Shown: piece by piece, positions 7,271 through 63,044 of the stretch
Position numbering within the stretch: the first letter of the stretch is position 1
How the letters are laid out: each line of letters begins with the position of its first letter
Source of the DNA: Nonlabens spongiae
Lineage (GTDB): Bacteria > Bacteroidota > Bacteroidia > Flavobacteriales > Flavobacteriaceae
DNA: 64,000 nucleotides
Assembly (NCBI RefSeq): GCF_002117125.1
Contig: NZ_CP019344.1
Coordinates: 2,570,501-2,634,500 of the forward strand
Reading direction: 5' to 3'
Program-made: the position numbers and the translations under genes
Notes under the pieces: model-generated
The model's input: only the letters and a program-made list of their open reading frames with translations
Database searches by the model: none
What the model was told of the DNA's origin: nothing

Positions 7271-8258
7271 CTTTATAATAGCTTGAGATGCGATCGATAC
7301 TTCGATCCAGAGGTGTGAAATCTTCTTCCAGAAATTGAAGAATTTTACTGTTGTCGTAATTGGTTTTTGATATCAAACTATGAATCACTGAGATCTTGAA
7401 TTTTTTGTTGAGTCCTAGGATATAACCTATATAACTTATTACAGAAACAAAGTAAAGAACTACTTTACCTAGCCTGATAGAGGGAGTTTTCTTCCCAAAA
7501 GATACCGCAATAGCGCTCAATAATTTCTTGTATGATAGGTTTTCAGAAACAAGTATGAATCGCTCATTTGTGATATCTGCATTCATAAGTTGATGCATGA
7601 CTTTTACCACATCTCTCACGTCTACAAAGCCACTACTTCCTGAGGTGTAAAATCTATTTCCTTTGAAAGACTTTTCAAATAGCTGTCCAGAACCCTCATT
7701 CCAGTTGCCTTCCCCTAGAATAACTCCAGGGTTGACTATCACTACATCCATTCCCTCCTGAGTCGCACGCCATGCTTCCATCTCAGCGCCATATTTTGAG
7801 ATCGCATAATCTGTATTAATACCATCAAGATTAAAAAAATCTTCTTCAGTTGTTGCGCGATCTCCCACAGGTTCTCCTAATGCCGCGATACTACTCACAT
7901 GACAGAATTTTTCAACTCCATGTGCCAGCGCAACATTGATTACATTTTCAGTTCCGGTGATATTTATGCGTTTCATCACATGAAAAGAAGAAGCACTTAA
8001 CGTTGCTGCACAGTGATAGACGTGTCTCACACCCTTAAAAGCACCTTCTAGCGCTGGTAGGTCCAGAATATCAGCCTTTTTCCAGATGAAGTCATCGACC
8101 AGTTTACTGTGGCTGGGATCATAGCTTTCAAAGACCTGTCTTGTTTTGTCTATGCTTTCCTTTTCTCGGTATAGCGCGATGGTGGTGGTTGCGCTTTCGC
8201 GAAAGCGATACAATAAATGAGACCCGACCAGGCCTGTTGCCCCAGTTATTAAAACCAT
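7254..8258 (-). CDS. NAD-dependent epimerase/reductase (SDR family)
   Basis: 334 aa, an extended short-chain dehydrogenase. TGATGLVGSH at residues 5-14 is the NAD(P)-binding Gly motif. HVYHCAATLSAS and VNVSSIAALGE-like segments (CHVSSIAALGE) and the catalytic pair YAISK (Tyr-x-x-x-Lys) follow. Substrate is unknown; relatives are annotated as dihydroflavonol-4-reductase-like. An exact copy of the 16-bp palindrome (8192-8207) encodes residues R18-S22 (RFRES), in the helix after the Gly motif. The C-terminus overlaps the convergent DUF4296 gene by 17 bases. Confidence 0.85.
   Translation of the reverse strand: MVLITGATGLVGSHLLYRFRESATTTIALYREKESIDKTRQVFESYDPSHSKLVDDFIWKKADILDLPALEGAFKGVRHVYHCAATLSASSFHVMKRINITGTENVINVALAHGVEKFCHVSSIAALGEPVGDRATTEEDFFNLDGINTDYAISKYGAEMEAWRATQEGMDVVIVNPGVILGEGNWNEGSGQLFEKSFKGNRFYTSGSSGFVDVRDVVKVMHQLMNADITNERFILVSENLSYKKLLSAIAVSFGKKTPSIRLGKVVLYFVSVISYIGYILGLNKKFKISVIHSLISKTNYDNSKILQFLEEDFTPLDRSIDRISSYYKAKRLP
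8192..8207. repeat. 16-bp palindrome CGCTTTCGCGAAAGCG, coding copy 1
   Basis: Exact copy inside the epimerase gene, read as RFRES. Confidence 0.95.
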
Positions 8259-8313
8259 GCTGTAAAAGTAAGCAATACCTCGATGTCCATACCACAGAAA
8301 ATAGTCAAAGCTA

Positions 8314-8321
8314 TATCTTTG
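8314..8321 (+). promoter_or_regulatory. -7 box of tyrS
   Basis: TATCTTTG, 22 bases before the tyrS ATG at 8344; matches TAnnTTTG. Confidence 0.5.
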
Positions 8322-8343
8322 CGGGTCTTAAAAAGACTTTGAG

Positions 8344-9642
8344 ATGGCCTATAATTTTGTAGAAGAGTTGAGATGGAGAGGTATGATTCACGATATCATG
8401 CCAGAGACTGAGGAATTGCTTAAAAATGAGGTAGTGACGGGCTATATAGGTTTTGATCCTACGGCTGACTCCCTGCACATAGGGAGCATGGTTCAGATCA
8501 TTTTGTTGATGCATCTACAAAAATCTGGGCATCGTCCCATCGCTCTTGTGGGTGGTGCTACCGGTATGATAGGTGATCCCAGCGGTAAGAGCGCAGAGCG
8601 CAACTTGCTTACTCAAGATATTTTAGACAAGAACATACAAGGTGTCAAAAAGGTTTTGAGCAGATTCATCGACTTTGAAGGTGGTGAGAAGGAAAATCGA
8701 GCTTTGCTAGTGAACAATTATGACTGGATGAAAGATTTCAGCTTGATAGACTTTGCACGCGATATAGGTAAGCACATCACAGTAAATTACATGATGGCCA
8801 AGGACTCGGTAAAAAAGCGTGTTGCCGGTGAAGGAGAAGGCATGAGCTTTACAGAGTTCACCTACCAGCTCTTTCAAGGTTATGATTTCTTGCACCTTTA
8901 TGAGAAGGAAAACTGTAAACTTCAAATAGGCGGTAGCGACCAGTGGGGAAATATTACTACGGGTACCGAATTGATCAGGAGAAAAGTGCAGGGTAAAGCT
9001 TATGCACTAACCACACCATTGATCACAAAGGCAGATGGGACTAAGTTTGGTAAAACTGAACAAGGAAACATCTGGCTGGATGCCGATAAAACAAGTGTCT
9101 ATAGATTTTACCAGTTTTGGTTCAACGCTACGGATGAAGATGCTAAGAACTTCATTAAAGTGTTTACTTTCCTAGATAAAGAAACAGTTGAAGAGCTGAT
9201 TAAAACCCACCAAGAAGCTCCAGGAAGACGCCAACTGCAGAAAAAGCTTGCTGAAGAGGTAACCGTGATGGTACACGGTAGAGAAGCTTTTGACAATGCA
9301 GTTGAAGCCTCATCTATATTATTCTCTAAAAAAGTAAGTCCTGAGCAATGGAGTAAAATGGATGCAGAGACCTTATTAGATATTTTTGAAGGAGTACCAC
9401 AAACTGAAATTGATCGCAGTATTGTAGAAGAAGGTCAAGACATTGTTACGTTTTGCAACGAGACCACCGGCTTTTTAAAATCAAATGCTGAGGTACGCCG
9501 CGCGTTAAAGGAAAACAGTTTGAGCGTCAATAAAAATAAGATCGATGCAGATAAGATGATTACAGCTGATGATATCATTGCTGGGAGTTTTGTACTTCTC
9601 CAGCGAGGAAAACGATCTTATTTTCTGGTGGTTCTAAAATAA
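8344..9642 (+). CDS. tyrS: Tyrosyl-tRNA synthetase
   Basis: 432 aa, class I synthetase that charges tRNA-Tyr. The HIGH-type motif is [11 protein letters not shown] (near residue 40). [13 protein letters not shown] follows, then [11 protein letters not shown] and the KMSKS-type motif KFGKTEQGN near residue 237. An S4 RNA-binding domain at the C-terminus holds the segment with [17 protein letters not shown]. Length is typical of bacterial TyrRS. It converges with the LuxE-like gene, with two bases between the stops and no terminator hairpin visible in the gap. Confidence 0.97.
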
Positions 9643-9644
9643 AA

Positions 9645-10619
9645 TCAGCTAGGTACGGCCATCAAGTTACAACCTCTCACGTCAGACTGGTCAAAGCGTC
9701 CCAAGACCTCAAAAGTTCCGCTTTTGTGGGTTTTACATAGATCTTGTGTAGCGACAAAGGGGCATGAGTTATAATTTGCTAGATCGATTACGTTTAATCC
9801 TCCCGTTTTGCCATGATCTATGATTTGTAGAGGGTCGTTTGTATCTCTTGCGACCACTTTCATCCAGGATGGTGTTGTAAAGTGTAACCCATTAAACGCA
9901 TAGGCTTGAGAAAGTAGCTCCGTCATACCGTATTCACTTTGAATTTGGGCATTGGGAAAAGATTTTCTCAGTATGCCGTGAAGTTCTTGCTTCACGATCT
10001 CTTTGCGCAAGCCTTTCATACCACCAGTTTCAATAATCGTGAGGTTACTGACGTCGCTTGGGAATTTTTCGGCGAGCTCTAGTAAGGCAAAGGTCACGCC
10101 TATGAGGATGATTTTTTTTGAAGATGATTTTAGAAGGTTCAGCTTTCGCGAAAGCGTAGACAACTCATCCAGATAAAATCCACTGTGTGCATTTGTGCTT
10201 TTATCGATCCAGCGTTGTGCCATGTAAACCAGTGAAGAGCCGGTTCGCTCTAAATAATGTGGTAATAATGCCAAAACAACATAATCCTCATGGTTTCCAT
10301 AAAATGATCTGAAACTCACGTCAAGACTCTGATCATAAACGGATAAATTTGTAAGATAATGTGTTGAGGTGTTGCTCCCAGTCGTACCGCTACTGGTAAA
10401 TTCTTTTTCGACCGTATCTGTCTCTGTTGAGATCTTGAACTTTTTGAAAAAGGAAATAGGTAAGAAAGGTATTTGCTCCAGACTATCGATACTACCCACA
10501 TTTAAATGGGAACAGTAGGTGTCGTAGATAGGATTGTGATCCCGTTGATATTTATAGATATCAAGCGCTAGTTTTTGAAACTCACGATCACTAGCTATTT
10601 CAAAAATGGGAAATTGCAA
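9645..10619 (-). CDS. LuxE/PaaK-like acyl-protein synthetase family protein
   Basis: 324 aa. KEFTSSGTTGSNTSTH near residue 90 is the adenylate-forming Ser/Thr/Gly-rich motif, and QSEYGMTELLSQAY near residue 235 is the second conserved motif of the LuxE/PaaK superfamily. These enzymes activate or transfer acyl groups; the substrate here is unknown, and flavobacterial relatives are often called acyltransferases. The start is TTG (10617-10619): a -7 box at 10636-10643 leaves no room for an upstream start and no in-frame ATG is closer. A one-mismatch palindrome copy (10141-10156) encodes TLSRKL. Confidence 0.8.
   Translation of the reverse strand: MQFPIFEIASDREFQKLALDIYKYQRDHNPIYDTYCSHLNVGSIDSLEQIPFLPISFFKKFKISTETDTVEKEFTSSGTTGSNTSTHYLTNLSVYDQSLDVSFRSFYGNHEDYVVLALLPHYLERTGSSLVYMAQRWIDKSTNAHSGFYLDELSTLSRKLNLLKSSSKKIILIGVTFALLELAEKFPSDVSNLTIIETGGMKGLRKEIVKQELHGILRKSFPNAQIQSEYGMTELLSQAYAFNGLHFTTPSWMKVVARDTNDPLQIIDHGKTGGLNVIDLANYNSCPFVATQDLCKTHKSGTFEVLGRFDQSDVRGCNLMAVPS
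10141..10156. repeat. 16-bp palindrome, one mismatch, coding copy 2
   Basis: AGCTTTCGCGAAAGCG: 15 of 16 bases match. Inside the LuxE-like gene, read as LSRK. Confidence 0.85.
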
Positions 10620-10635
10620 CGCTGTAGGTTTAGGA

Positions 10636-10643
10636 CAAAAGTA
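10636..10643 (-). promoter_or_regulatory. -7 box of the LuxE-like gene
   Basis: TACTTTTG on the minus strand, 16 bases before the TTG start; it supports that start. Confidence 0.5.
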
Positions 10644-10647
10644 TATA

Positions 10648-10680
10648 AAAAAGCAGCGTGACTATAGAGCCACACTGCTT
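10648..10680 (-). terminator. Terminator of the lamin-tail T9SS protein gene
   Basis: Stem 10652-10660 with 10671-10679. One pair is G-U only in the minus-strand RNA, which then runs into T's. It lies 24 bases past the stop of the gene at 10704. Confidence 0.75.
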
Positions 10681-10703
10681 ATGTAAAAAGTAGGTTTAAG
10701 ATC

Positions 10704-12770: not shown

Positions 12771-12787
12771 AATAATTGAAATTTTTA

Positions 12788-12881: not shown

Positions 12882-12897
12882 CGCTTTCGCGAAAGCG
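12882..12897. repeat. 16-bp palindrome, intergenic copy
   Basis: Exact CGCTTTCGCGAAAGCG in the 267-base divergent region between the lamin-tail gene and the response regulator. Confidence 0.95.
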
Positions 12898-19888: not shown

Positions 19889-19904
19889 CGCTTTCGCGAA
19901 AGCG
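19889..19904. repeat. 16-bp palindrome, intergenic copy after gdhA
   Basis: Exact copy. Flanks extend the identity with the copy at 45925 to 29 bases (19883-19911 versus 45919-45947). Confidence 0.95.
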
Positions 19905-23000: not shown

Positions 23001-25405
23001 GAAGAATTTTATTATTCCTTGCCTTATTTTGTTTTGTTTCACTGCTCGCTGCCCAGTCTGTAAAAGTTATGGATCGCTTTAGCGGTGAGCCTGTGGTGTC
23101 AGCGCTCATTTATAATAAATCAAAAAAAACAGTTGCATATACTGATGTATTTGGAAATGCGAGCTTAGATGCCTTTGAAGATCAGGAAGCAATCTATTTT
23201 AAAAGTACCAGCTATGTAACGGCTCATTTTTCAAAGAATGAATTAGATAAGCTTAAGTGGACGGTGCGCATGATGCCAGATGGAGAAGCGATGGATCCCA
23301 TTGTTCTCTCTGCATCAAAATTTGAGCAAAGAAAACAAGATATCCCCCAGAAGATCATATCCCAATCCAGAGAACAGGTTCTCAATCAAAACCCACAAAC
23401 CAGTGCTGATCTTTTGCAGCAATCTGGCCAGGTCTTCGTCCAGAAATCCCAGCAAGGTGGTGGTAGTCCCATGATCAGAGGTTTCTCAACAAACCGTCTT
23501 CTACTTACGGTTGATGGCGTGCGCATGAACAACGCTATTTTCAGATCGGGAAATCTTCAAAATGTCATATCTATCGACCCCTTGAGTATCGAGCGTACTG
23601 AGGTAATTTTAGGCCCGGGCAGCGTTGTTTACGGGAGTGATGCCATAGGAGGTGTGCTTAATTTTTATACTACACAACCTAAATTTTCTCAAGACTCCAC
23701 CGCTTTTCATGGAAATGCACTTTTGCGCTACGCAACCGCAAATCAAGAAAATACGGCTCATGTTAATCTCAAATATGGTCGTAAGAAATTTGCCAGTGCT
23801 ACCAGCATCACCATAAACTCTTTCAACGATTTGAGAATGGGTAGTCACGGCCCGGACGATTATCTGAGGGAGTCATTTGTTATACGCAACGGTGATGAGG
23901 ATGTTCTGGTCTCAAATCCAGATCCTAGAGAACAGGTCCCGACTGGTTACAGCCAGATCAATCTGTTACAAAAATTTTCGTTTCAAGATAACCCCAGATG
24001 GCGGTATGACGCTTCACTCATTTACACAGCGACCAGTGATGTGGATCGTTATGATGCATTAGACCGCTTTCGCGAAAGCGGAAACCCCAGAAACGCCGAG
24101 TGGTATTACGGGCCACAGAAATGGTTGTTTCTTAACGGGAAGATTCACCACGAAGCTGACAACTATTTTTATGATCGTGCGGTCTTTACCGCTGCTTTTC
24201 AAAGATTCAATGAAAGTCGCATCACGAGGGATTTTCAGGAAATAGATAGGTTTAAGACTGCTGAAGAAGTAGATGTTTACATCGCTTCTATAGATTTTGA
24301 AAGACACGACGAGAAGAAGAACACGCTCTTTTACGGTGGAGAGTTTGTGCATAACCGTGTAGATTCAGACGGTAGCCTTACTAATATTATCAATGGAGCT
24401 ACTGCAGATGCGGCATCTCGTTACCCTGATGGCTCTTCATGGAGATCACTAGCGTTTTATGCAAACTATCAGTGGAGGTTGAGAGATGATCTGACGTTGC
24501 AATCTGGTTTAAGGTATAATCATATATGGATCGACGCAGATTTTGACACACCATTTTTTGATTTCCCATTTGAAAAAGCCCATGCTGACACGGGAGCACT
24601 AACTGGCGCCCTAGGTGCGACCTATAGACCAGGGAACAGTTGGGAAATCCGTACAAACCTGAGTACAGCTTTCAGAGCACCTAATATTGATGATATTGGA
24701 AAAATCTTTGATCCGAGCCCGGGCACGGTCGTAGTTCCTAACCCAGATATTGAGGCTGAATACTCTTACAATTACGAGGTGGGAGTGAGTAAAAAATTCT
24801 TTGACCGATTTGATGTGGATATCGCAGGCTACTATACGTATTTGAAAGACGCTCTAGTAGTTAGAGACTTTAGCCTAAACGGTCAAGAAGAGATCGTTTA
24901 CCAAGGCGAACTAAGTAGAGTGCAGGCTGTCCAAAACGCTGAAGAGTCTATGGTTTATGGACTGGAATTAGGTCTGAACTTTAAGGTAAATGAATTCCTA
25001 CAACTTGCTGGTCATTACACGGTCGTAGAAGGAGAGCAAGAGGAAGAAGATGGCGCAAAGGTCTCTGTGAGACATGTGGCTCCAGATTTTGGAGATGTTC
25101 ATGCGATCATCGACTTAGGAAAATTAGATCTTGACGCTTTTGCGGTGTTTAACGGTAGCATAGACTTTGAAGATTTAGCTCCCAGTCAGCAAAGCAGGCC
25201 CTACCTTTATGCTCTAGATACCAATGGCAATCCGTACTCCCCTAGTTGGTACACCTTGAACTTGAGATCTAGATATGCCATTAACGACAGTCTTGCCGTA
25301 ACCGCAATTGCTGAAAACATTACCGATCAGCGCTATCGAACCTATTCTTCAGGAATTGCTGCAGCGGGATTTAATTTTATTGCTTCAGTAGATTACCGAT
25401 TCTAG
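22997..25405 (+). CDS. TonB-dependent outer-membrane receptor
   Basis: 802 aa. The signal peptide MRRILLFLALFCFVSLLAAQ is read from a TTG start that overlaps the recO stop. A carboxypeptidase-regulatory-like domain spans about 20-95, a plug domain about 110-220 (QTSADLLQQSGQVFVQKSQQGGGSPMIRGF, RTEVILGPGSVVYGSDAIGGV), and a 22-strand barrel ends in Phe (SVDYRF). The plug and length resemble heme/hemoglobin or siderophore receptors; the ligand is not known. An exact palindrome (24065-24080) encodes residues 357-361, RFRES, in a loop. It uses proton-motive force through TonB to import its ligand. Confidence 0.9.
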   Translation: MRRILLFLALFCFVSLLAAQSVKVMDRFSGEPVVSALIYNKSKKTVAYTDVFGNASLDAFEDQEAIYFKSTSYVTAHFSKNELDKLKWTVRMMPDGEAMDPIVLSASKFEQRKQDIPQKIISQSREQVLNQNPQTSADLLQQSGQVFVQKSQQGGGSPMIRGFSTNRLLLTVDGVRMNNAIFRSGNLQNVISIDPLSIERTEVILGPGSVVYGSDAIGGVLNFYTTQPKFSQDSTAFHGNALLRYATANQENTAHVNLKYGRKKFASATSITINSFNDLRMGSHGPDDYLRESFVIRNGDEDVLVSNPDPREQVPTGYSQINLLQKFSFQDNPRWRYDASLIYTATSDVDRYDALDRFRESGNPRNAEWYYGPQKWLFLNGKIHHEADNYFYDRAVFTAAFQRFNESRITRDFQEIDRFKTAEEVDVYIASIDFERHDEKKNTLFYGGEFVHNRVDSDGSLTNIINGATADAASRYPDGSSWRSLAFYANYQWRLRDDLTLQSGLRYNHIWIDADFDTPFFDFPFEKAHADTGALTGALGATYRPGNSWEIRTNLSTAFRAPNIDDIGKIFDPSPGTVVVPNPDIEAEYSYNYEVGVSKKFFDRFDVDIAGYYTYLKDALVVRDFSLNGQEEIVYQGELSRVQAVQNAEESMVYGLELGLNFKVNEFLQLAGHYTVVEGEQEEEDGAKVSVRHVAPDFGDVHAIIDLGKLDLDAFAVFNGSIDFEDLAPSQQSRPYLYALDTNGNPYSPSWYTLNLRSRYAINDSLAVTAIAENITDQRYRTYSSGIAAAGFNFIASVDYRF
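24065..24080. repeat. 16-bp palindrome, coding copy in TonB receptor
   Basis: Exact copy, read as RFRES. Confidence 0.95.
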
Positions 25406-25415: not shown

Positions 25416-26054
25416 ATGTCGCCACTCGAAATTAAGATTCACGATCAAAATTTTGTGCTACACCCATCGGGAGCGTGTTTTTGGGAGGAGCAAGACGTGG
25501 TGCTATTAGCTGATGTGCATTTAGGCAAGAGTGCCCACTTCAGGAAACACGGTATGGCAGTTCCTTCCACCGCAGACGATGTAGAGTATGACAAATTAAA
25601 TGCGGTGATTGAGTATTTTAATCCTGACAGTATCTGGTTTTTGGGAGATCTGTTCCACTCTTATCAAAATGCAGAGTGGCACTATTTTGAACAATGGGTG
25701 CGCATGCAGCAAATTGAAATCGTTCTTGTAATGGGAAACCATGATATAATTTCTCGTGATCATTTCAAAGCGCTGGGAATTAAAACTTATGATATTCTCA
25801 ACGCTGGAAAATTCTATTTTACGCACCATCCACAAGAAGTAGCAGGAAGATTTAATTTTTCAGGTCACATTCATCCTGCGGTAAAATTGCAGGGAGTAGG
25901 TAGGCAAAAAGTAAAATTGCCATGTTTTTTTCAAAGCGAGACCGGCATGATACTGCCTGCATTTGGAGATTTTACAGGAACGTATTGCATGACTCCAGTT
26001 AAAGGTAATAAGATTTATGCCGTCGCAGATGATGAGGTGGTGGAGTGCTGTTAA
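25416..26054 (+). CDS. pdeM: PdeM-like metallophosphoesterase (DNA ligase-associated)
   Basis: 212 aa calcineurin-like phosphoesterase with all metal motifs: LLADVHLGKSAHFRKHG, FLGDLFHS, VMGNHD and FSGHIHPAV. This set and length fit the 'ligase-associated DNA damage response endonuclease PdeM' family. In many genomes it sits with LigB-type ligase, an Lhr-like helicase and an exonuclease; none of these is in view here. It lies 10 bases after the TonB receptor gene. Its stop overlaps the stop of the convergent ABC ATPase gene. Confidence 0.85.
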   Translation: MSPLEIKIHDQNFVLHPSGACFWEEQDVVLLADVHLGKSAHFRKHGMAVPSTADDVEYDKLNAVIEYFNPDSIWFLGDLFHSYQNAEWHYFEQWVRMQQIEIVLVMGNHDIISRDHFKALGIKTYDILNAGKFYFTHHPQEVAGRFNFSGHIHPAVKLQGVGRQKVKLPCFFQSETGMILPAFGDFTGTYCMTPVKGNKIYAVADDEVVECC

Positions 26055-27766
26055 ACCGCAGGGATTGCCGCAATTAACTTTCTGGTATATTCTTTTTTAG
26101 GATTTTCGTACAGAGCATCGGCCTCATTGATTTCTTCTATTTTGCCTTTGTTCATGACGACGATGCGATCACAAAAGTATTTGACCACTGCAAGATCGTG
26201 AGATATGAATAAGTAGCTGAAATCATAAAGTTCTTTAAGTTCATTCAACAAATTCAAAACCTGAGCCTGAACACTTATATCCAGAGCGCTCACACTTTCA
26301 TCACAAACAATTAACGACGGTTCAAGAGCAATAGTCCTGGCGATACCTATACGCTGTCTTTGTCCACCGCTGAACTCATGTGGATATTTATAAAAGGAAT
26401 TTTCAGCGAGCCCTACTCGATTGATTAAGGTTTTGGTTTTTTGTTCTCGATCTTTTCGATTTTCACCTATCCCATGCCATTTCATGGCCTCCATAATACA
26501 GTTGCCCACGGTAACCCTAGGATTCAATGATGAGTAGGGATCTTGAAAAATAATTTGAAGCTCTTTGCGCAAAGATCTCATCGATTTCTTATCCAGCCTG
26601 GCTATGTCCTGTCCTTTAAATAATATACTGCCTTCACTGATTGATTGCAGTCCTAGAATCATATTTCCCAACGTACTTTTTCCGCAGCCACTTTCTCCTA
26701 CAAGACCGAGACTTTCTTTAGGGTAGAGCTGAAAACTCACATCACTTACAGCTCTGAAATAATCCTGTTTTTTGAAAAGCTGTTTTTTCAACGAGTAGTC
26801 TTTGAAGACATTCTGAACCTCTAAAATGGGTTGTTGATCATAGATCTTCCTGAGTCTTAATTTTCGTGCCTCGCTGGTAATTTCCCTAAAACCTGTGTTG
26901 TTTTCAAGAAAATCCTTTACAGTAGGTAAGCGCTCTAAACGTTCACTGGTTTTGGGTCTTGAGGCTAGTAGAGCTTTAGTATAATTTGCCTGTGGACTGT
27001 TGAATACTTGTTTGGCAGAGCCTATTTCCTCAATTTGCCCTTTAAACATAACCATAATTCGGTCTGCGATATTTTGCACGAGGGCAAGGTCGTGAGATAT
27101 GAAAATAATGGACATACCATACTCGTGCTGCAATTCCTTCAGCAAATTTATGATTTCCTGTTGCACGGTTACATCCAGTGCCGTTGTGGGCTCATCAGCG
27201 ATCAAGAGTTTAGGTTTACAAGCAATAGCCATGGCGATCATCACGCGTTGCATCTGACCGCCACTTATCTCATGCGGGTATTTTTGAAAGGTTTTCTCTG
27301 GATCGGGAAGTTTGACTTTTGCAAAAAGATCCAGCACCTCACTTTTACGATGCCTTTTGTTTAGATCGGTATGCAATTCAAGAATCTCGCTTACTTGAAC
27401 ACCGCAGGTTTTGGTAGGGTTGAGCGAGCTCATGGGTTCTTGAAAGATCATGCTTATCTCGCTTCCGCGAAAGCGTGCTAAAGATGAACCCTTTTCTACA
27501 GTTATGACTCCAGATTTAGATGAAAAGTCCTCTCCCAAAACCTCAAACCGATCTGCTGTAATATTTAAGGTTTGTGGTAATAGACCCATTAAAGATTTGA
27601 ACGTAATAGATTTACCACTCCCAGATTCTCCTACCACGCCTAGAATTTCATTTGAAAAACACTGAAACGAAATGTTTTTAATGAGTTCAAGATGCTGCTC
27701 TCTTTGCGGGACCTTGATACAAAGTCTCTGAATATTACATAAGATTTTATTTGTGGACAATCTCAT
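26051..27766 (-). CDS. Duplicated ABC ATPase of peptide/oligopeptide importer type
   Basis: 571 aa with two full ABC domains. The first has Walker A GESGSGKS near residue 45, SGGQMQR and [12 protein letters not shown]. The second has GESGCGKS near residue 358, SGGQRQR and [11 protein letters not shown]. Each domain ends with the oligopeptide-type C-terminal extension. This is a fused DppD-DppF/YejF-like protein that powers dipeptide or microcin-type uptake. No permease or binding-protein gene is nearby, so its partner is encoded elsewhere. A one-mismatch palindrome (27460-27475) is read as RFRGS in domain one. The start overlaps the exonuclease gene by 20 bases. Confidence 0.9.
27460..27475. 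repeat. 16-bp palindrome, one mismatch, coding copy in ABC ATPase
   Basis: CGCTTCCGCGAAAGCG: T to C at position 6. Confidence 0.85.
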
Positions 27767-28460: not shown

Positions 28461-30827
28461 CTACATTTCTAATTCTCCTTCTACCGCGTTGTCATCATCT
28501 AACGGATCTCCTTCTTGAGAATTTTTATACTCATTACAATTAACTGTGATGCTGAGGTCTTCAGGCTCTTTGAAAGATTCCTTAGAGATGTCTAGCCTAT
28601 CATCTGCATAGGCATTTTTCATAAATGTACCCCATATAGGTAATGCCATTGAGGCACCCTGTCCATATCTAGTGCTGGAAAAATGAACTGAACGGTCCTC
28701 ACCGCCTACCCACACTCCGGTTACCAGATTAGGAACCATACCCATGAACCATCCATCTGAATTGTTCTGTGTAGTACCGGTCTTACCGGCAATATCGTTT
28801 TTGAAATTGTAAGGATAGCCAGTCATAATCTCCTTATACAAGGCTGTTTTTTTGAGATACTCGCTATCACCTCTCAAACGAGTCCCACTACCGCCGCGAG
28901 TTACACCTTCCATCAATTTAACGGTCACATAAGCCGTTTCTTCATTCATTACATCCTTGCTCTCTGGAGTGTATTGATATAACAGAGTACCATTTTTATC
29001 TTCAATACTAGTTACTAGTACAGGTTCATTATAGATGCCTTGATTAGCAAATACAGCATAAGCCCCTACCATTTGAAATAAATTCACATCTGAAGTTCCC
29101 AGAGCAAGCGATGGAACAGCATCAAAGTTGCTTGTATCTATGCCTAGCTGACTTACTCGATCTATAACGGCTTGAGGCCCGACTTCATCCATTAATCTCG
29201 CTGAGATCGTATTTTTTGATTTAGCTAGAGCTTGTGTAAGCGTTAAAATATTACCGTAATCCCCACTAGAATCTCCTGGAGTCCAGTCTTTAGTATTTCC
29301 CCATTTCCCTGCTGGTATAGTATACTCACCATCAGGAAATTCCTTACAAGGCGAGTAATTTAGAAGGTCTATCGCGGTCGCATACAAGAACGGCTTGAAT
29401 GTAGATCCAGGTTGTCTTTTTCCTTTCTCAACGTGATCGTATTTGAAGTACTTATGATTGTAACCGCCCACCCAAGTTTTTACATGACCCGTTTGCGGCT
29501 CAATGGACATCATACCTGAGCGCAGGTGCTGCTTATAATAAAGAATGCTGTCTCGCGGAGTCATGAGCGTATCCTTCTCTCGGTTTTCAGACTTCCAGTC
29601 AAAAACAGTCATTTCTGTTTTTTTGTCAAAGCTTTTCTCGATTTCTTCATCGCTCAAACCTTTAGCTTTCAAAAGCTTCCAGCGTTCAGAACGTACCATA
29701 GCTCGTTTAACCACTCTGTCAATCTGCTTTTGATCCAAATCAGAAAATGGAGCGGTTTTGTTACGCTTCATCTGGTGGTCAAATTCTGCCTGGAGATTTT
29801 CCATGTGGGCAAGCATGGCATCTTCTGCATGCTTCTGTAATCGGTAATCGATGGTAGTGTTAACCTTAAGGCCATCGTTGTATAAGTTATAGGGTTTTCC
29901 CGTATCCTTATTAACATTCTCACGAGCCCAATCGGTAAGCCAGCTACGTAGGTATTCACGGAAATAGGTTCCCATTCCCTCATTGTGACTTGCAGATTGA
30001 AAGTCTAGTTTTATCGGAATTTGTTTGAGGCTGTCTTTTACTTCTTCGGTCATTTTATCATTACGAACCATTTGTACAAACACCTGATTACGCCTCATCA
30101 GAACATTCTCTCGACTTGCTTCAGTACGTCTAGGATTAAATAGAGCTGGATTTTTGAGCATGGCTACAAATACCGCACTTTCAGATACGGTTAGATCTTT
30201 GGGTTCTTTATCAAAGTAAATATTAGCCGCAGATCTAATTCCTATGGCTTGATACAAAAAGTCAAATTCATTTAGGTACTGAGTAAGAATCTCTTCTTTA
30301 GTGTATTGTTTTTCCAAGCGCGTCGCGATGATCCATTCCTTTATTTTCTGGATGATACGGTCTACAGTATTTCGGCTGGGTTCTTCAGTGAAATAAAGTT
30401 TGGCTAATTGCTGCGTGATGGTACTTGCGCCTCCTCGCTGACCTAAAAAAACTGCTGCACGAGTCGTTCCATAACCGTCTATACCGCTATGATCAAAAAA
30501 GCGCTCATCTTCAGTTGATACTAATGCATCGATCAGATTTTGAGGCAGGTCTTCATACTTTACGGGTTTTCTATTGTCTGTATAGAAGGAGCCCAGTGTT
30601 CTACCGTCTGCGGTAACGATTTCTGTAGCGAGTTCTGTTTGTGGATTTTCCAGGGCGGTATGGTCTGGCAAGTCACCAAAAACTTCCCACGCGGCCAGCA
30701 TAAATAGTAGCACTACCATTCCTAGACCCAGTCCTACCAGTTTCCAAAACAGCAGAATATTCTTTCTGTTGTTTTCAGGTTTATTATTTTTCCCCTTAGC
30801 CGCAGTCTTCTTTTTACTCGTTGCCAT
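28461..30827 (-). CDS. Penicillin-binding protein 1A (transglycosylase/transpeptidase)
   Basis: About 788 aa from the ATG at 30827. An in-frame ATG at 30848 would add seven residues; I prefer MATSKKKTAAKGK as the start. A basic cytoplasmic N-terminus precedes one membrane helix (about 25-50). The GT51 glycosyltransferase has TEDERFFDHSGIDGYG and GGASTITQQLAK. The transpeptidase has GSTFKPFLYA (S-x-x-K), SKNTISARL (S-x-N) and GKTGTTQNNSDGWFMG (K-T-G). It polymerises and cross-links peptidoglycan in the periplasm. The start overlaps the end of gldH by a few bases. Confidence 0.95.
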   Translation of the reverse strand: MATSKKKTAAKGKNNKPENNRKNILLFWKLVGLGLGMVVLLFMLAAWEVFGDLPDHTALENPQTELATEIVTADGRTLGSFYTDNRKPVKYEDLPQNLIDALVSTEDERFFDHSGIDGYGTTRAAVFLGQRGGASTITQQLAKLYFTEEPSRNTVDRIIQKIKEWIIATRLEKQYTKEEILTQYLNEFDFLYQAIGIRSAANIYFDKEPKDLTVSESAVFVAMLKNPALFNPRRTEASRENVLMRRNQVFVQMVRNDKMTEEVKDSLKQIPIKLDFQSASHNEGMGTYFREYLRSWLTDWARENVNKDTGKPYNLYNDGLKVNTTIDYRLQKHAEDAMLAHMENLQAEFDHQMKRNKTAPFSDLDQKQIDRVVKRAMVRSERWKLLKAKGLSDEEIEKSFDKKTEMTVFDWKSENREKDTLMTPRDSILYYKQHLRSGMMSIEPQTGHVKTWVGGYNHKYFKYDHVEKGKRQPGSTFKPFLYATAIDLLNYSPCKEFPDGEYTIPAGKWGNTKDWTPGDSSGDYGNILTLTQALAKSKNTISARLMDEVGPQAVIDRVSQLGIDTSNFDAVPSLALGTSDVNLFQMVGAYAVFANQGIYNEPVLVTSIEDKNGTLLYQYTPESKDVMNEETAYVTVKLMEGVTRGGSGTRLRGDSEYLKKTALYKEIMTGYPYNFKNDIAGKTGTTQNNSDGWFMGMVPNLVTGVWVGGEDRSVHFSSTRYGQGASMALPIWGTFMKNAYADDRLDISKESFKEPEDLSITVNCNEYKNSQEGDPLDDDNAVEGELEM

Positions 30828-31317
30828 CTGACTGATTTTGTTTTTCAATACTGTATCCCACGTTGAGAATGCCCTCTAGTTCAGTAACTCCTTTTACCTC
30901 TCCGTTTTTTCTGGTAGCGTGACTGAGTATGAGTTGATAGGTTCCGCTTTCGCGAAAGCGTACACCTTCCTTAAGCCACAACTTGTTTTCAAACACATCT
31001 CTTGAACCTTTGCCCAGAAACTCTCCTTGAGGGTTTGCCATGAGGTATTCCAGCGTATCTACAACGGTCTTGCCTTCAGGAAATTTTATCTGTGAAATTA
31101 AATAAATGTTATTGAAAACATATTTCTCAGAGTTCCTAAGATTGATAAACAGGTTGTAATCGTTGATCGTATCAGGCGGATTGAATGAGAATACAACGGG
31201 ATGATCTAAACGCCATTTTGCAGTATCAAAAGCTTGGGAATCACTCATCACGTGTGATTCATCACAAGATGATAAAGCTATTGTAACAAGCAGGATAAAG
31301 GAAAATTGAAATTTCAT
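30814..31317 (-). CDS. gldH: Gliding motility lipoprotein GldH
   Basis: 167 aa. The lipoprotein signal MKFQFSFILLVTIALSSC has the lipobox Cys at residue 18. The body carries YNLFINLRNSEKYVFNNIYLI and LEYLMANPQGEFLGKGSRDVFENKLWLK, which match GldH of Flavobacterium, needed for gliding and chitin use. Its position between ricT and the PBP1A gene is also the flavobacterial arrangement. An exact palindrome (30945-30960) encodes RFRES around residue 120, just before SGTYQL. The ATG abuts the ricT stop. Confidence 0.9.
   Translation of the reverse strand: MKFQFSFILLVTIALSSCDESHVMSDSQAFDTAKWRLDHPVVFSFNPPDTINDYNLFINLRNSEKYVFNNIYLISQIKFPEGKTVVDTLEYLMANPQGEFLGKGSRDVFENKLWLKEGVRFRESGTYQLILSHATRKNGEVKGVTELEGILNVGYSIEKQNQSDGNE
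30945..30960. repeat. 16-bp palindrome, coding copy in gldH
   Basis: Exact copy, read as RFRES. Confidence 0.95.
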
Positions 31318-34712: not shown

Positions 34713-34738
34713 ATTTACGCTTTCGCGAAAGCGTAAAT
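34713..34738. repeat. Extended 26-bp palindrome containing the 16-bp repeat
   Basis: The core 34718-34733 is exact. ATTTA and TAAAT flanks extend the perfect symmetry to 26 bases. It lies directly beyond the glmS terminator. Confidence 0.95.
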
Positions 34739-39233: not shown

Positions 39234-40088
39234 ATGGTTTTCAAAAGCAAAAATGAAGTTGCAATAAAGATCAAAGCCCTGGCAAGTGAGGATTTAAGCA
39301 TAGGCTTTGTACCCACCATGGGAGCTCTTCACGATGGGCACATTGCTTTGATGAAAACAGCTGCTCTTGAAAATGACGTTCTCGCAGTAAGCATTTTTGT
39401 AAATCCCACCCAATTCAACAATTCAACTGATTTGGATAAATATCCTCGTAATGTGGGGAAGGATATTGAACTCATATATTCACATTTTGATAAGGAGCAA
39501 ACCATTATTTACACTCCTGATGTTGATGATGTTTACAGCGATCAAATTATAGCAAAACACTACGCTTACGGTGGATTAGAAAATAAAATGGAAGGAGCCA
39601 GTAGACCTGGTCATTTTGATGGGGTAGGTACCATATTAGAATTTCTTTTTCATCTCTTTAAACCCGCTCGAGCCTACTTTGGGGAGAAAGATTTTCAACA
39701 GCTCCAAATCGTCAAATCGCTCAGAGAACAATTGGCTCTGGATCTTGAAATTATAGGTTGTCCTATAAGCCGTGAGGACTCTGGACTGGCGCGTAGCTCC
39801 AGGAACGGCAGGCTCACTGATTTGGGATGGATTACCGCTGCAAAAATCTACCAATCGCTATTGCTGGCAAAGGAGATGTATGCCTCTGGAAAATATGACC
39901 GCATTCAAAAAACGGTTGAACAGACCTATGATAAAATTGAAAATTTAGATCTGGAATATTTTACCATCGCTAGGGAAGTTGATCTAGAAACAGCACCTCC
40001 TGCTGAGATGCCGCAAAAAGGTCTTCGTGCTTTTGTAGTAGCTCACGTAGACGGCGTGCGTCTTATCGATAATATGAAGCTGTCTTAG
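39234..40088 (+). CDS. panC: Pantothenate synthetase
   Basis: 284 aa. It joins pantoate and beta-alanine with ATP to make pantothenate, the coenzyme A precursor. FVPTMGALHDGHIALM near residue 23 is the HIGH-type ATP site. VNPTQFNNSTDLDKYPR, MEGASRPGHFDGVGTIL, YFGEKDFQQL and SREDSGLARSSRN (a KMSKS-like loop) follow. Its partner panD is the next gene, 148 bases on, with a palindrome and a separate promoter between them. Confidence 0.97.
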   Translation: MVFKSKNEVAIKIKALASEDLSIGFVPTMGALHDGHIALMKTAALENDVLAVSIFVNPTQFNNSTDLDKYPRNVGKDIELIYSHFDKEQTIIYTPDVDDVYSDQIIAKHYAYGGLENKMEGASRPGHFDGVGTILEFLFHLFKPARAYFGEKDFQQLQIVKSLREQLALDLEIIGCPISREDSGLARSSRNGRLTDLGWITAAKIYQSLLLAKEMYASGKYDRIQKTVEQTYDKIENLDLEYFTIAREVDLETAPPAEMPQKGLRAFVVAHVDGVRLIDNMKLS

Positions 40089-40108: not shown

Positions 40109-40124
40109 CGCTTTCGCGAAAGCG
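40109..40124. repeat. 16-bp palindrome, intergenic copy between panC and panD
   Basis: Exact copy, 20 bases past the panC stop. Confidence 0.95.
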
Positions 40125-45924: not shown

Positions 45925-45940
45925 CGCTTTCGCGAAAGCG
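45925..45940. repeat. 16-bp palindrome, intergenic copy after the M23 gene
   Basis: Exact copy. Shares 29 identical bases with the copy after gdhA (19883-19911). Confidence 0.95.
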
Positions 45941-50064: not shown

Positions 50065-50086
50065 TTACGCTTTCGCGAAAGCGTAA
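50065..50086. repeat. 22-bp palindrome containing the 16-bp repeat
   Basis: Core 50068-50083 exact; TTA/TAA flanks extend the symmetry. It lies in the divergent region between the antiporter and the MBL hydrolase gene. Confidence 0.95.
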
Positions 50087-50226: not shown

Positions 50227-51069
50227 ATGAATATTCATCCCGTAGAGGCCGGCAATTTTAAACTAGATGGAGGCGCGATGTTTGGTGTGGTGCCTAAATC
50301 GCTCTGGCAACGCACTAATCCTGCAGATTCAAATAACATGATTGATATGGCCGCCCGCTGTCTTCTTGTGGAAGATGGTGACAGGCTCATTCTCATGGAT
50401 ACTGGAATGGGAAACAAGCAGAGCGAGAAGTTTTTTGGGTACTACTATATGGATCACAAGTACGACCTGGACAGCTCACTTAAGAAGTTGGGCTTTTCAC
50501 GTGATGATATTACTGATGTGTTTCTGACCCATTTGCACTTTGACCATTGTGGTGGTGTGATTCAAAAAAGTGGTAAGGGAGATTATTATGAGCCCGCTTT
50601 CGCGAAAGCAAGAATCCACTCAAACTCTTCACACTGGGACTGGGCCGTCAACCCGAACGCTCGTGAAAAAGCCAGCTTTCTCAAGGAAAATATTCAACCA
50701 ATTAAGGAGAGTGGACAACTCAACTTTGTGGATGAAGGTACGGCAGATTTACCTTTTGAACTGTTGTACGTGGATGGTCATACTGAAAAACAGATGATTC
50801 CTCATTTAAAAATAGACGGTAAGACCTTCGTCTACATGGCAGATTTGTTACCTACCGCGGGTCACGTGCCACTGCCATACGTCATGGGATATGACACTAG
50901 ACCACTGCTCACTCTGGATGAGAAGAAAAAATTTCTAGATACAGCAGCAACTGAGGGGTATTACTTAATATTAGAACATGATCCTAATAATGAGATCATA
51001 ACTGTTAAACATACTGAAAAAGGGGTGCGACACGACCGCACTTTTACATTTAAAGAACTTTTAGACTAA
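50227..51069 (+). CDS. MBL-fold metallo-hydrolase
   Basis: 280 aa metallo-beta-lactamase fold. The metal motif is TDVFLTHLHFDHCGG near residue 99 (H-x-H-x-D-H). The other ligands are in YVDGHTEKQMIP (His), VYMADLLP (Asp) and LILEHDPNN (His). Relatives include lactonases and other hydrolases; the substrate is unknown. A one-mismatch palindrome (50595-50610) is read as PAFAKAR, directly before the RIHSNSSHWDW segment. It is one base upstream of the subtilase gene, so co-expression is very likely. Confidence 0.88.
   Translation: MNIHPVEAGNFKLDGGAMFGVVPKSLWQRTNPADSNNMIDMAARCLLVEDGDRLILMDTGMGNKQSEKFFGYYYMDHKYDLDSSLKKLGFSRDDITDVFLTHLHFDHCGGVIQKSGKGDYYEPAFAKARIHSNSSHWDWAVNPNAREKASFLKENIQPIKESGQLNFVDEGTADLPFELLYVDGHTEKQMIPHLKIDGKTFVYMADLLPTAGHVPLPYVMGYDTRPLLTLDEKKKFLDTAATEGYYLILEHDPNNEIITVKHTEKGVRHDRTFTFKELLD
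50595..50610. repeat. 16-bp palindrome, one mismatch, coding copy in MBL gene
   Basis: CGCTTTCGCGAAAGCA: last base differs. Read as AFAKA. Confidence 0.85.
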
Positions 51070-57269: not shown

Positions 57270-57285
57270 CGCTTTCGCGAAAGCG
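57270..57285. repeat. 16-bp palindrome, intergenic copy between accB and accC
   Basis: Exact copy, 33 bases past the accB stop. Confidence 0.95.
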
Positions 57286-58726: not shown

Positions 58727-58744
58727 ATTTATCATCAAAGACTC

Positions 58745-58780
58745 AAAGCCCAAGTTCACTATCTGATCTTGGGCTTTTTT
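58745..58780 (+). terminator. accC terminator
   Basis: Stem 58745-58754 with 58768-58777, 13-base loop, ending in six T's. Confidence 0.88.
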
Positions 58781-58789
58781 GTTGAATTT

Positions 58790-58853
58790 CGCTTTGACTT
58801 CGACTCCGTGGTCATTGAGCGGAGTCGAAATGCTCAGCGACCGCGCGAAAGCG
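58790..58853. repeat. 16-bp palindrome split by a 48-bp hairpin element
   Basis: CGCTTT (58790-58795) and CGCGAAAGCG (58844-58853) together rebuild the 16-bp palindrome exactly. The 48 bases between them contain a perfect 10-bp inverted repeat, TTCGACTCCG (58799-58808) and CGGAGTCGAA (58820-58829), with an 11-base loop, a type of short repeat familiar from Bacteroidota intergenic DNA. Confidence 0.7.
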
Positions 58854-58954
58854 TATTAAAATAAAAATCTCCAACCAAGTATATCTGGTTGACCATAGAT
58901 GCTTGGGAGTCTTAGGGTAATAAAATAATTAACTATTTTTTCTGTTTTATCTAA

Positions 58955-61900: not shown

Positions 61901-62362
61901 AATGCGCAAATAGGCTTTAATTCCAGCAGCAGCGAGAATTTCCCCAATCGGAATTTCAAAATCGATGAAAATCTCATTAAGCCACAAATTTCCTATTTGT
62001 TCAACGACAGTAATCGCATCGATCTATTTTTTGAATACCAAGACAAAAAAAACGAAGTAAACGATCTCGCAACCCTCTCACAAAGTAACCTAGGCGTTAC
62101 CTGGTCTTTTAATGAAAGCCAGAAATATGCGATCAACGGTGAGCTGCGATACGTCAACAATGTATTTGAAGGTGTCGCTTTCTCCCCAGCTGGTTTTCAG
62201 ATGCTGGAAGGGCTACAACCAGGCTCTAACTTGACTTGGAATCTGTTATTTCAAAAAAAGCTGACCAGTTACCTGGATCTCAACCTCAATTATAATGGTC
62301 GTGGGACAGAGAGCAGTCGCACTGTTCACAATGGCAGCGTACAGCTCAAAGCTTATTTTTAG
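58955..62362 (+). CDS. Giant outer-membrane beta-barrel protein, SprA-like motifs
   Basis: 1135 aa with a Sec signal (MRWYILFFLLAIGYSGYSQ). The body is a long run of amphipathic strands ending in the aromatic KAYF, as outer-membrane barrels do. A segment at about residues 285-335 (ELFILVVSGSERVFVNGVPLTRGENADYVIDYNAGEVRFTPTFPI) resembles the repeated extracellular motif of SprA, the T9SS translocon. At 1135 aa it is under half of SprA (about 2400), so this is not SprA itself. I do not recognise a named family. A large surface or secretion-related barrel is the best reading. It overlaps queD by four bases. Confidence 0.65.
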   Translation: MRWYILFFLLAIGYSGYSQDYGNVVSKRVKVSDSIRLDSVSISPRYFQLKYRDGTLVDSTLYQIDFSKALIRFQPSLSEAMDSLDVQYQKLPDFLTRTYQSGDPAVILDNESQLEKLVASQKPRSTNTFVPFSGLNVSGSISRGFRSGNNQSGVVDSELDLRVTGKLNDRVSLRASIQDANVPQTQNGYSQRLDEFDQIFIELFSEDWNIRAGDVDLVQTDFQFNSFTKRVQGISGTINFGSEDHRAYASAAGALVRGTFNISRFTGQEGNQGPYKLTGQNGELFILVVSGSERVFVNGVPLTRGENADYVIDYNAGEVRFTPTFPITSEMRISIEYQYSERNFTRVIGFANGGYKSEKLQIDTYAYTESDAKNQPLQQNLTEEQVAILAQAGDDESLAVAPSAVPDSFSENKILYTRSVINGQEVFTFSQDPNEELFNVRFSFVGQGNGNYVLINDQAIANIYEYVAPVNGIPQGNFAPVVQLFAPEQLTIFGAKANYQPFEKTIIATEIAASNNDLNRFSELDDENNRGIAAKLGVAQTLFEDKDNVSLTARANVDYVQEDFQNVERVYNIEFNRDWNLNNESGSQLYSTTGLDFKVDSTFTTSYEFQLLEFSDSYSGNRHRLVGLLSTPGWKARYNASLLNSESNTLSTEFNRADVDVVKKIKKNYAGARFGMEDNKQKLVATNQFTGESQRFYNYEVYVGRGDTTSTFVEVGYRRRINDSLRSNEIQRVNASNNYYLKSQLLKDQVSNLAIYANYRRLKSEMENVEDEVSFNSRILYRRKFFEGKILSNTTYETNSASIARQDFTYVSVNPGQGTFTWIDYNNDGVQELNEFEVAQFQDQASFVRVLLPNQIFLPTHQNKFSQTLTLQPASWSQEEGLKKILSQFYNQIGYTIDRMVLREGDAFNLNPFRRADDQQGLNLSFRNSLFFNRGKQRYTTNYTYLSTETENLQSIGSIASELESHQLSFLHKIAEQWLITFNAQIGFNSSSSENFPNRNFKIDENLIKPQISYLFNDSNRIDLFFEYQDKKNEVNDLATLSQSNLGVTWSFNESQKYAINGELRYVNNVFEGVAFSPAGFQMLEGLQPGSNLTWNLLFQKKLTSYLDLNLNYNGRGTESSRTVHNGSVQLKAYF

Positions 62363-62811
62363 GCCTGATCGCTAGCGTGCCATTCCGCATAGCTGGTTTC
62401 TGTTTCCCTGAGTCTTAGGGAAAAAAGCTCAAGATGCTCGGGTAGACGTGATTTGATTTTCTCGGCAAAATCCAGAATCATCATCTCGCTTGTAGGCTGG
62501 TAATCGGCGAGAATCACATCATGACCTCTGCCTCTCAGTTCTTCAGCAAGTTCTACGTGAGGGGTGTTTTTGTTAAAAACAGTAGCATGATCAAAAGGAT
62601 CCACAATTTCTTCCTTGACGATTTTCTTCAAGTCGCCAAAATCGATCACCATTCCCAGCTTCACATTATTAGTGTCAGAAATAGGAGTGCCAATCACGGT
62701 AACGGCTAATTTATAACTATGTCCATGCACATTACGGCATTTACCGTCATAGCCGTGAAGCGCGTGACCGGTTTCAAAAGTAAATTCCTTGGTGATGCGT
62801 ACCTTTTTCAT
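62359..62811 (-). CDS. queD: 6-carboxytetrahydropterin synthase (QueD/PTPS family)
   Basis: 150 aa. FETGHALHGYDGKCRNVHGHSYKLAV holds the catalytic Cys and the zinc-binding His set of the pterin synthase fold. VIDFGDLKKIV and the C-terminal RLRETETSYAEW follow. It makes the 6-carboxy pterin precursor of queuosine or, less likely, a tetrahydrobiopterin precursor. The ATG overlaps the stop of a 45-aa membrane protein gene (ATGA on the minus strand). Confidence 0.93.
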   Translation of the reverse strand: MKKVRITKEFTFETGHALHGYDGKCRNVHGHSYKLAVTVIGTPISDTNNVKLGMVIDFGDLKKIVKEEIVDPFDHATVFNKNTPHVELAEELRGRGHDVILADYQPTSEMMILDFAEKIKSRLPEHLELFSLRLRETETSYAEWHASDQA

Positions 62812-62945
62812 CTTCTGTTCTTAAAAAACTTATTGTAAGCCACCACAACTACGAGAATGATTGCAATTAAAAGAAAGATACCGGTCCCACCCATAAATCT
62901 TGAAATGGAAATAAACCAGTTTTCGTCGTCTATTTGAAGCAGCAT
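62808..62945 (-). CDS. 45-aa single-span membrane protein upstream of queD
   Basis: Minus-strand ATG at 62943-62945 and TGA at 62808-62810. The protein is MLLQIDDENWFISISRFMGG, then a strongly hydrophobic span of about 18 residues (TGIFLLIAIILVVVVAYN) and a basic tail KFFKNRR. Support comes from a perfect -7 box 14 bases upstream (62960-62967), a four-base ATGA overlap with queD, and an ideal signal-anchor profile with positive residues inside. I recognise no family. It may help queD translation by coupling, or be an independent small membrane peptide. Confidence 0.7.
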   Translation of the reverse strand: MLLQIDDENWFISISRFMGGTGIFLLIAIILVVVVAYNKFFKNRR

Positions 62946-62959
62946 AGCAAAATTTTCCG

Positions 62960-62992
62960 CAAAGATACTGAGTTATATACAGTTGATTTCAA
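62960..62992 (-). promoter_or_regulatory. Promoter of the small membrane protein-queD operon
   Basis: TATCTTTG (62967-62960, minus) with a TTG at 62992-62990 and a 22-base spacer. Confidence 0.5.
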
Positions 62993-63028
62993 GTAGCTCA
63001 TTCAATTGTAGTTGTTTTAGAGTGTTTC

Positions 63029-63044
63029 CGCTTTCGCGAAAGCG
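63029..63044. repeat. 16-bp palindrome, intergenic copy before tRNA-Gln
   Basis: Exact copy, about 100 bases before the tRNA. Confidence 0.95.

What the first reader, a model, noticed from the sequence alone, without database searches (positions are those of the whole stretch)
8192..63044. Highly iterated 16-bp palindrome CGCTTTCGCGAAAGCG, about one per 4 kb
Twelve exact copies (8192, 12882, 19889, 24065, 30945, 34718, 40109, 43021, 45925, 50068, 57270, 63029) and three with one mismatch (10141, 27460, 50595) lie in 64 kb. Chance expectation for a given 16-mer in this length is about 0.00003. Copies occur on both sides of genes and inside genes, and none has the T-run of a terminator. The first 8 kb has none. 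The pattern resembles highly iterated palindromes of cyanobacteria (HIP1) or DNA uptake sequences of competent bacteria. A nucleoid- or chromosome-organising protein, or a methylase, could also read it. I do not recall a described function for this motif.
Basis: partly seen in the sequence, partly recalled or inferred. Interest (0 to 1): 0.88.

Follow-up and report, generated by a model that had tools for sequence, protein, structure and literature searches.

The report
Evenly spaced genome-wide DNA palindrome
The DNA of Nonlabens, a group of marine bacteria, carries the same 16-letter mirror-image word hundreds of times, spaced far more evenly than chance and kept through evolution even where it dictates part of a protein, which points to an unknown protein that reads the whole chromosome through it.

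Summary
CGCTTTCGCGAAAGCG occurs 12 times exactly in the window and 671 times in its 3.39-Mb Nonlabens genome (reversed control 0). The 22 congeners examined carry 180-737 copies; Dokdonia sinensis has 630 and one more genus 153; the other family genomes examined have 0-13. The element is a 14-16 bp palindrome with G/T-rich 5' arms, detectable to about 30 bp, on both strands. Copies avoid each other: 2 of 202 intervals are under 1 kb, against 47 expected. At orthologous places 117 of 164 (non-independent) site-genome pairs are exact, against 6.5% for matched control 16-mers. In genes it forces peptides such as AFAKA (87 seen, 0.3 expected). AT-rich stretches have fewer copies and two Nonlabens phages none; some phage contigs carry it. 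Terminators, RecBCD-Chi, a Noc-like ParB and a C5 methylase were tested and do not fit. The open-access papers searched do not describe it. Best reading: double-stranded address sites for an unidentified dimeric protein that must touch resident DNA every few kb, probably a nucleoid-organising factor; a DNA-uptake signal is the main rival. The reader protein was not found.

The parts
8192..8207 (.). exact palindrome, inside predicted gene 7254-8258(-)
10141..10156 (.). one-mismatch copy (outer base), inside predicted gene 9645-10619(-)
12882..12897 (.). exact palindrome, intergenic between divergent genes
19889..19904 (.). exact palindrome, intergenic between tandem genes
24065..24080 (.). exact palindrome inside predicted gene 23069-25405(+), read as RFRES; same place in a BBFL7 locus (L052)
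27460..27475 (.). one-mismatch copy inside predicted gene 26051-27589(-)
30945..30960 (.). exact palindrome inside predicted gene 30814-31248(-), read as RFRES; same peptide at the same place in four other Nonlabens loci (L099, L124, L266, L268)
34718..34733 (.). exact palindrome, intergenic between tandem genes
40109..40124 (.). exact palindrome, intergenic, 20 bp after the pantoate ligase gene 39234-40088
45925..45940 (.). exact palindrome, intergenic upstream of lepA
50068..50083 (.). exact palindrome, intergenic between divergent genes
50595..50610 (.). one-mismatch copy (outer base) inside predicted gene 50227-51069(+), read as AFAKA; 527 bp from its neighbour, one of two 14-mer pairs under 1 kb in the sample
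57270..57285 (.). exact palindrome, intergenic between tandem genes
63029..63044 (.). exact palindrome, intergenic, 100 bp before a tRNA-Gln gene (63145-63216)

Best explanation
The palindrome is the core of a double-stranded binding site for an unidentified, probably dimeric, sequence-specific DNA-binding protein. Each monomer would read one 8-bp half site and make weaker contacts along the adjoining G/T-rich arm. Sites are kept so that most stretches of a few kb of resident DNA have one, and a second close by is not kept. The most likely use is chromosome organisation: a nucleoid-associated or segregation factor that binds evenly spaced addresses. Shown here: number, sharpness, arms, even spacing, in-place change rather than insertion, conservation beyond flanking DNA, depletion from AT-rich stretches, absence from two Nonlabens phages. 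Inferred: the protein, its dimeric form, the architectural role.
For: Palindromic core with mirror-symmetric arms; arms are not complementary to each other within a site at most distances, so no extended hairpin is being kept. Even spacing: CV 0.45 over 98 listed intervals; 0, 2 and 9 of 202 intervals under 0.5, 1 and 1.5 kb against 27, 47 and 65 expected when intergenic/genic class is preserved; also seen in G234. E. coli Chi, a yardstick of similar density, is random (CV 1.04). Conservation: 117 of 164 pairs exact against 6.5% in controls, motif masked before alignment (about ten linked groups of places); 6 of 16 in-gene sites shared with another genus, G234. Density falls from divergent (0.78/kb) to convergent intergenic DNA (0.22/kb), as expected of a bound protein that avoids transcription. 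Phage contigs with head and tail genes carry copies. A published argument ties palindromy and even spacing to intracellular or compaction roles (PMC1939737).
Against: No reader protein was found. The one nucleoid-protein family tested, ParB, has no extra copy that tracks the motif. More copies are in genes than outside (120 against 100). A 43.6-kb stretch without an exact copy is tolerated, so local absence is not lethal. No clear origin-terminus pattern was seen in the sample. Patchy distribution needs several losses or gains. The strand asymmetry of the arms is not specifically predicted.
Confidence: 0.42

Rival explanations
1. DNA uptake sequence: competent cells preferentially import DNA bearing the element, and biased import followed by recombination spreads and repairs copies.
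For: Hundreds of copies with over-representation falling steadily with mismatch load (261, 32, 16, 61 observed against 0.002, 0.10, 2.2, 28 expected for 0-3 mismatches of the 14-mer), the pattern that PMC1939737 reports for uptake sequences (passages). Extended flank preference. Fewer copies in AT-rich stretches, none in two Nonlabens phages. ComEC in 13 of 13 motif-rich genomes. A Flavobacteriaceae member, Riemerella columbina, prefers its own DNA, with the signal unidentified (PMC7965970, section 16 read). Second copies close by would add no uptake, which could also give even spacing.
Against: Known uptake sequences are not palindromes and are less evenly spaced (PMC1939737). ComEC is also in 18 of 19 motif-poor genomes, so it does not track the motif. 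I know of no report of natural transformation in Nonlabens or Dokdonia (recall, not searched). Copies in phage contigs are not what an uptake signal predicts.
Confidence: 0.28
2. Recombination or self-mark signal: the site stops or licenses a nuclease or loads a recombinase, and the G/T-rich arm is the 3'-ended strand on which RecA is loaded on each side.
For: On both sides the 5' arm of each strand is G/T-rich, the strand that would become a 3' tail at a break in the palindrome; RecA's preference for GT-rich DNA is recalled. Phage contigs carry the element. Density is like that of E. coli Chi.
Against: E. coli Chi in 250 kb is randomly spaced and lacks a G/T-rich 5' flank (CV 1.04, G+T 0.52). 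RecC is absent from all 32 genomes tested. Known Chi sites are short and not palindromic (recall). The arms are weaker in G234 although the core is kept.
Confidence: 0.15
3. By-product of DNA methylation or biased repair, as proposed for HIP1.
For: HIP1 is a precedent of an iterated palindrome tied to methylases (PMC4390886, passages).
Against: PF00145 is absent from 7 of 13 motif-rich genomes, including one with 680 copies. A 14-16 bp nearly invariant core is much longer than methylase sites (recall). Conservation at orthologous places points to maintenance. Adenine and N4-cytosine methylases were not tested.
Confidence: 0.05
4. REP-like or other small mobile element, or a terminator hairpin.
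For: Palindrome, partly intergenic.
Against: Flanks share composition rather than a common sequence. Orthologues without the site mostly align without a gap: 3 of 253 pairs are gapped. In genes it replaces residues in register in most alignments. T is enriched 5', not 3', and convergent regions are the poorest.
Confidence: 0.03

Closest known systems
HIP1 (GCGATCGC) of cyanobacteria
   Same: Short perfect palindrome, many copies, said to be maintained by selection, chromosomal role among those suggested (PMC6604393 and PMC4390886, passages seen)
   Different: 16 bp instead of 8; about 1 per 5 kb instead of 1 per 1.1 kb in Synechocystis; symmetric G/T-rich arms; no methylase known to read the core; a different phylum
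DNA uptake sequences of Neisseriaceae and Pasteurellaceae
   Same: Genome-wide, sharp, clade-limited, over-representation falls with mismatch load
   Different: Those are non-palindromic and less even in spacing (PMC1939737); here copies are rarest in convergent regions; uptake untested
Chi sites
   Same: Similar density and coverage-type placement
   Different: Evenly spaced and palindromic here; Chi is random in 250 kb of E. coli; RecC absent
Noc and SlmA sites, parS
   Same: Palindromic addresses of similar length for dimeric nucleoid proteins (recall)
   Different: Tens of sites there (recall), hundreds here; no extra ParB tracks the motif; SlmA-like TetR proteins not tested

Membership tests
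HIP1 | GCGATCGC octamer | tested here: not met
   The sequence is CGCTTTCGCGAAAGCG
HIP1 | iterated palindrome maintained by selection | tested here: met
   671 copies; 117 of 164 pairs exact against 6.5% in controls, pairs not independent
HIP1 | associated DNA methyltransferase | tested here: inconclusive
   C5 methylase PF00145 in 6 of 13 motif-rich genomes only, so that class does not fit; other methylase classes not tested
DNA uptake sequence | promotes uptake of DNA that bears it | not testable with these tools
   needs a transformation assay
DNA uptake sequence | over-representation that falls with mismatch load | tested here: met
   compared with PMC1939737 (passages)
DNA uptake sequence | non-palindromic, not strongly evenly spaced | tested here: not met
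   perfect palindrome, CV 0.45-0.49; description from PMC1939737
DNA uptake sequence | competence channel ComEC in carriers | tested here: met
   13 of 13 motif-rich; also 18 of 19 motif-poor, so not discriminating
Chi of RecBCD | RecBCD present | tested here: not met
   PF04257 (RecC) in 0 of 32 genomes, found in the E. coli control
Noc or parS-type site | ParB-family reader beyond the chromosomal ParB | tested here: not met
   11 of 13 motif-rich genomes have a single ParB_N match; a second, in a frame of about 616 aa, occurs in two of them and similar ones in some motif-poor genomes
intrinsic terminator | T-run 3' of the hairpin, placed at gene ends | tested here: not met
   T is 5', A is 3'; convergent regions poorest, 7 of 93 placed intergenic sites
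REP/BIME | copies inserted with shared flanks, RAYT transposase | tested here: not met
   no common flank sequence, 3 of 253 pairs gapped; RAYT not searched
sequence-specific nucleoid protein array | specific binding protein with an effect on nucleoid structure | not tested
   reader unknown

The most novel reading that the evidence does not exclude
Nonlabens, Dokdonia and at least one other Flavobacteriaceae genus have a sequence-addressed chromatin: a dimeric nucleoid protein bound to several hundred evenly spaced, roughly 46-76-bp symmetric addresses about 4 kb apart, kept strongly enough to write pentapeptides such as AFAKA and RFRES into proteins and adopted by some resident phages.
Probability: 0.35. 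Interest if true: 0.92.

Novelty: new variant of a known kind. Interest (0 to 1): 0.82.

Why it matters
I found no described function for so dense, even and conserved a DNA address in Bacteroidota, and the function of HIP1 and the ultimate role of uptake sequences are still debated. A genus-wide element with a clear 14-bp core gives a direct handle: fish out its binding protein, map it, and test chromosome folding, segregation and DNA uptake. It is also a clear case of a DNA-level signal overriding protein sequence: AFAKA occurs 87 times in the proteins predicted from the sampled third of the genome against 0.3 expected.

Tried and rejected
Hairpin or cruciform through the arms: at 15 mirrored distances pairing is near the shuffled mean, except above it at distance 15 (84 against 68, sd 6.3) and below it at distance 10 (51 against 71). 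Sub-motifs in the arms: most words follow position-wise composition; TGA, TTGA and TTTGA are above it. Dialects: a 2-mismatch survey of 397 genomes found no other genus above 31 copies, and 10 motif-poor genera x 40 kb have no iterated palindrome of their own (for one of the ten, G145, the count also took in two loci chosen for their motif copies). Relics of a lost ancestral system: no AFAKA in 120,111 predicted residues of those genera. RecC, ParB and C5-methylase readers. Literature: no paper holds the 16-mer; ten hold TTTCGCGAAA and none looked relevant in the listing; Nonlabens or Dokdonia with palindrom- (7 and 5 papers, listings only); uptake sequence with Flavobacteri- or Bacteroidetes (2 and 1 papers). 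The LepA tree rejects one clade for the three motif-rich genera, but it is one gene; rpoB sequences could not be fetched.

Results against my reading: copies are commoner in genes than between them; a 43.6-kb stretch and several sampled 20-kb stretches lack exact copies; Dokdonia loci shared 0 of 7 in-gene places with the window genome; the arms are weak in G234. The conservation figure rests on few places: the 164 pairs fall into about ten linked groups, one of which holds 138 pairs and may merge several places; 7 of the 10 have at least one exact partner. Most non-exact pairs come from two genes. At least 4 of the 253 pairs counted as non-exact at the 60% threshold are one-base misalignments of an intact site. 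Most named loci were fetched because they hold the motif, so sharing with them (11 of 17 with other Nonlabens) is biased upward, apart from L263-L282.
Full report
OBSERVATION. In the whole genome (3,393,235 bases, 2 contigs) the 16-mer occurs 671 times and its reversed control 0 times. All 22 congeners examined have 180-737 copies. With up to 2 mismatches these are 1052 and 541, and no other genus exceeds 31.

ANATOMY. I sampled the window plus 59 evenly spaced 20-kb stretches (1.244 Mb). They hold 220 exact copies, 63 with one mismatch (38 at the outermost base) and 13 with two. The working core is the 14-mer GCTTTCGCGAAAGC: 261 exact, 32 one-off, 16 two-off against 0.002, 0.10 and 2.2 expected. 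On both sides the 5' arm of each strand is rich in G and T and poor in C: T at -3 is 0.80, and C is 0.02-0.10 at each position from -3 to -12. The bias is strongest within about 20-30 bp and fades by about 60. It is present in intergenic and in-gene copies alike, in other Nonlabens and in Dokdonia, and weaker in G234. An arm score separates own elements (mean 8.5) from random places (mean -10.8). Of 15 single hits in other taxa 12 score -8.2 or lower; three, titled Aquimarina, Polaribacter and Cytophagaceae, score 4.8-12.7 and so look real.

PLACEMENT. 100 of 220 copies are intergenic although predicted genes cover 85% of the sample (genes called by my own script). Of the intergenic copies 93 have both neighbours in view: density is 0.78 per kb between divergent genes, 0.49-0.64 between tandem genes and 0.22 between convergent genes. 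Density rises with local G+C (Spearman 0.61 over 59 stretches), so AT-rich, foreign-looking stretches have fewer. Among the first 100 listed positions, 98 intervals have CV 0.45 and 1 is under 1.5 kb (29 expected; the single 43.6-kb gap was left out, and with it the CV is 0.95). Over 202 intervals of the 14-mer in the sample, 0, 2 and 9 are under 0.5, 1 and 1.5 kb, against 27, 47 and 65 when each copy is re-placed at random in its own class and stretch. G234 shows the same: 1 of 39 under 1.5 kb, 8.9 expected. E. coli Chi in five 50-kb stretches is random, CV 1.04 over 58 intervals.

EVOLUTION. I compared lepA-centred 20-kb regions of 20 congeners and the window, with the motif masked before alignment. 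Where both 40-bp flanks are at least 65% identical, 117 of 164 site-genome pairs are exact, against 6.5% of control 16-mers matched on flank identity; at 60% it is 167 of 253 against 4.5%. The pairs are far from independent: they form about ten linked groups, one with 138 of the 164 pairs. In the two genes that give most non-exact pairs the peptide is kept or nearly kept while the DNA word is lost: AFANA or AFANS for AFAKA with 5-7 DNA mismatches, and LSRK unchanged with 8. Of 253 pairs 3 are gapped, so copies arise and vanish in place rather than by insertion. With the motif residues masked, 6 of 16 in-gene sites have a core at the aligned place in G234, whose stretches were not chosen for single sites (control windows 2 of 1663), against 0 of 13 in motif-poor genera and 0 of 7 in Dokdonia loci. 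A LepA tree of 30 genomes rejects one clade for Nonlabens, D. sinensis and G234 (AU p 0.0001), and for Nonlabens with D. sinensis (p 0.011). This is a single gene.

COST TO PROTEINS. In-gene copies fall mainly in the frame that reads AFAKA (77 of 120), then RFRES (28) and LSRK (15). AFAKA occurs 87 times in the sampled proteins, 0.3 expected, and 80 of those have the motif's own bases; RFRES occurs 31 times, 0.1 expected. In 120,111 residues from 10 motif-poor genera AFAKA is absent, 0.14 expected.

PHAGES AND ISLANDS. Nonlabens phages P12024S and P12024L have 0 copies in 71 kb, and 80 viral loci with a related terminase have 0 in 831 kb, most of their hosts unknown. Other viral contigs have several: 6 in 37 kb, 4 in 24 kb. 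Two such groups encode portal, capsid, terminase or tail-sheath proteins, and one an integrase. They were found by their motif, so this is not a rate. In 12 loci from low-copy genera, taken because copies cluster there, 23 of 27 copies have positive arm scores. Three loci outside the genus (L046, L244, L247) share 7-9 kb at 86-91% identity with own stretch L198, whose genes look by eye like metal efflux. This looks like DNA transferred from a motif-rich donor.

READER. Not found. RecC is in 0 of 32 genomes. Every one of the 32 has a chromosomal ParB; a second ParB_N protein is patchy and does not track the motif. A C5 methylase is missing from 7 of 13 motif-rich genomes. ComEC is in 31 of 32.

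INTERPRETATION. A perfect palindrome with mirrored arms suggests a dimeric reader of double-stranded DNA. Even spacing and conservation of sites suggest a coverage function: resident DNA needs one site every few kb and no second one nearby. PMC1939737 (passages seen) argues that uptake sequences lack palindromy and the evenness expected of compaction sites; this element has both. I therefore rank a nucleoid-organising or segregation role first (0.42), an uptake signal second (0.28) and a recombination or self-mark signal third (0.15). An experiment could reorder these. The search of open-access full text found no description of the motif; subscription journals and preprints were not covered.

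Noticed in passing
L198 (window genome 840001-860000): Island that by eye encodes metal efflux (CusA-like and P-type ATPase-like genes), 86-91% identical over 7-9 kb to three loci outside the genus (L046, L244, L247) that hold the motif too.
   Followed up: partly
window genome C1 261472-305075: A 43.6-kb stretch with no exact copy; the sampled part (280001-300000) is AT-rich, 36.5% G+C.
   Followed up: no
L242 (window genome C2, 13,959 bp): Small second contig with, by eye, efflux, TetR-like and integrase-like genes, and two copies of the palindrome.
   Followed up: no
window genome C1 2891885-2892163: Second ParB_N protein in an open frame of about 616 aa, also in a few other genomes of the family; possibly on mobile DNA.
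   Followed up: no
G378, G394, G308, G339: One or two copies each, in a capped list, of a symmetric variant CGCTTCCGCGGAAGCG in motif-poor genera; too few to call a dialect.
   Followed up: partly
L162, L179, L182, L360, L361: A phage lineage with terminase, portal-like and sheath genes carries 1-6 exact copies per 36-38 kb contig, about 0.8 of host density in one member, with weak arms.
   Followed up: partly
window genome about 840-1196 kb: Seven neighbouring sampled stretches average about 1.9 exact copies per 20 kb against 3.5 overall; may be terminus-proximal or accessory DNA.
   Followed up: no
L057, L100, L139: Single copies with Nonlabens-like arms in loci titled Aquimarina, Cytophagaceae and Polaribacter; transfer or further carriers.
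   Followed up: no
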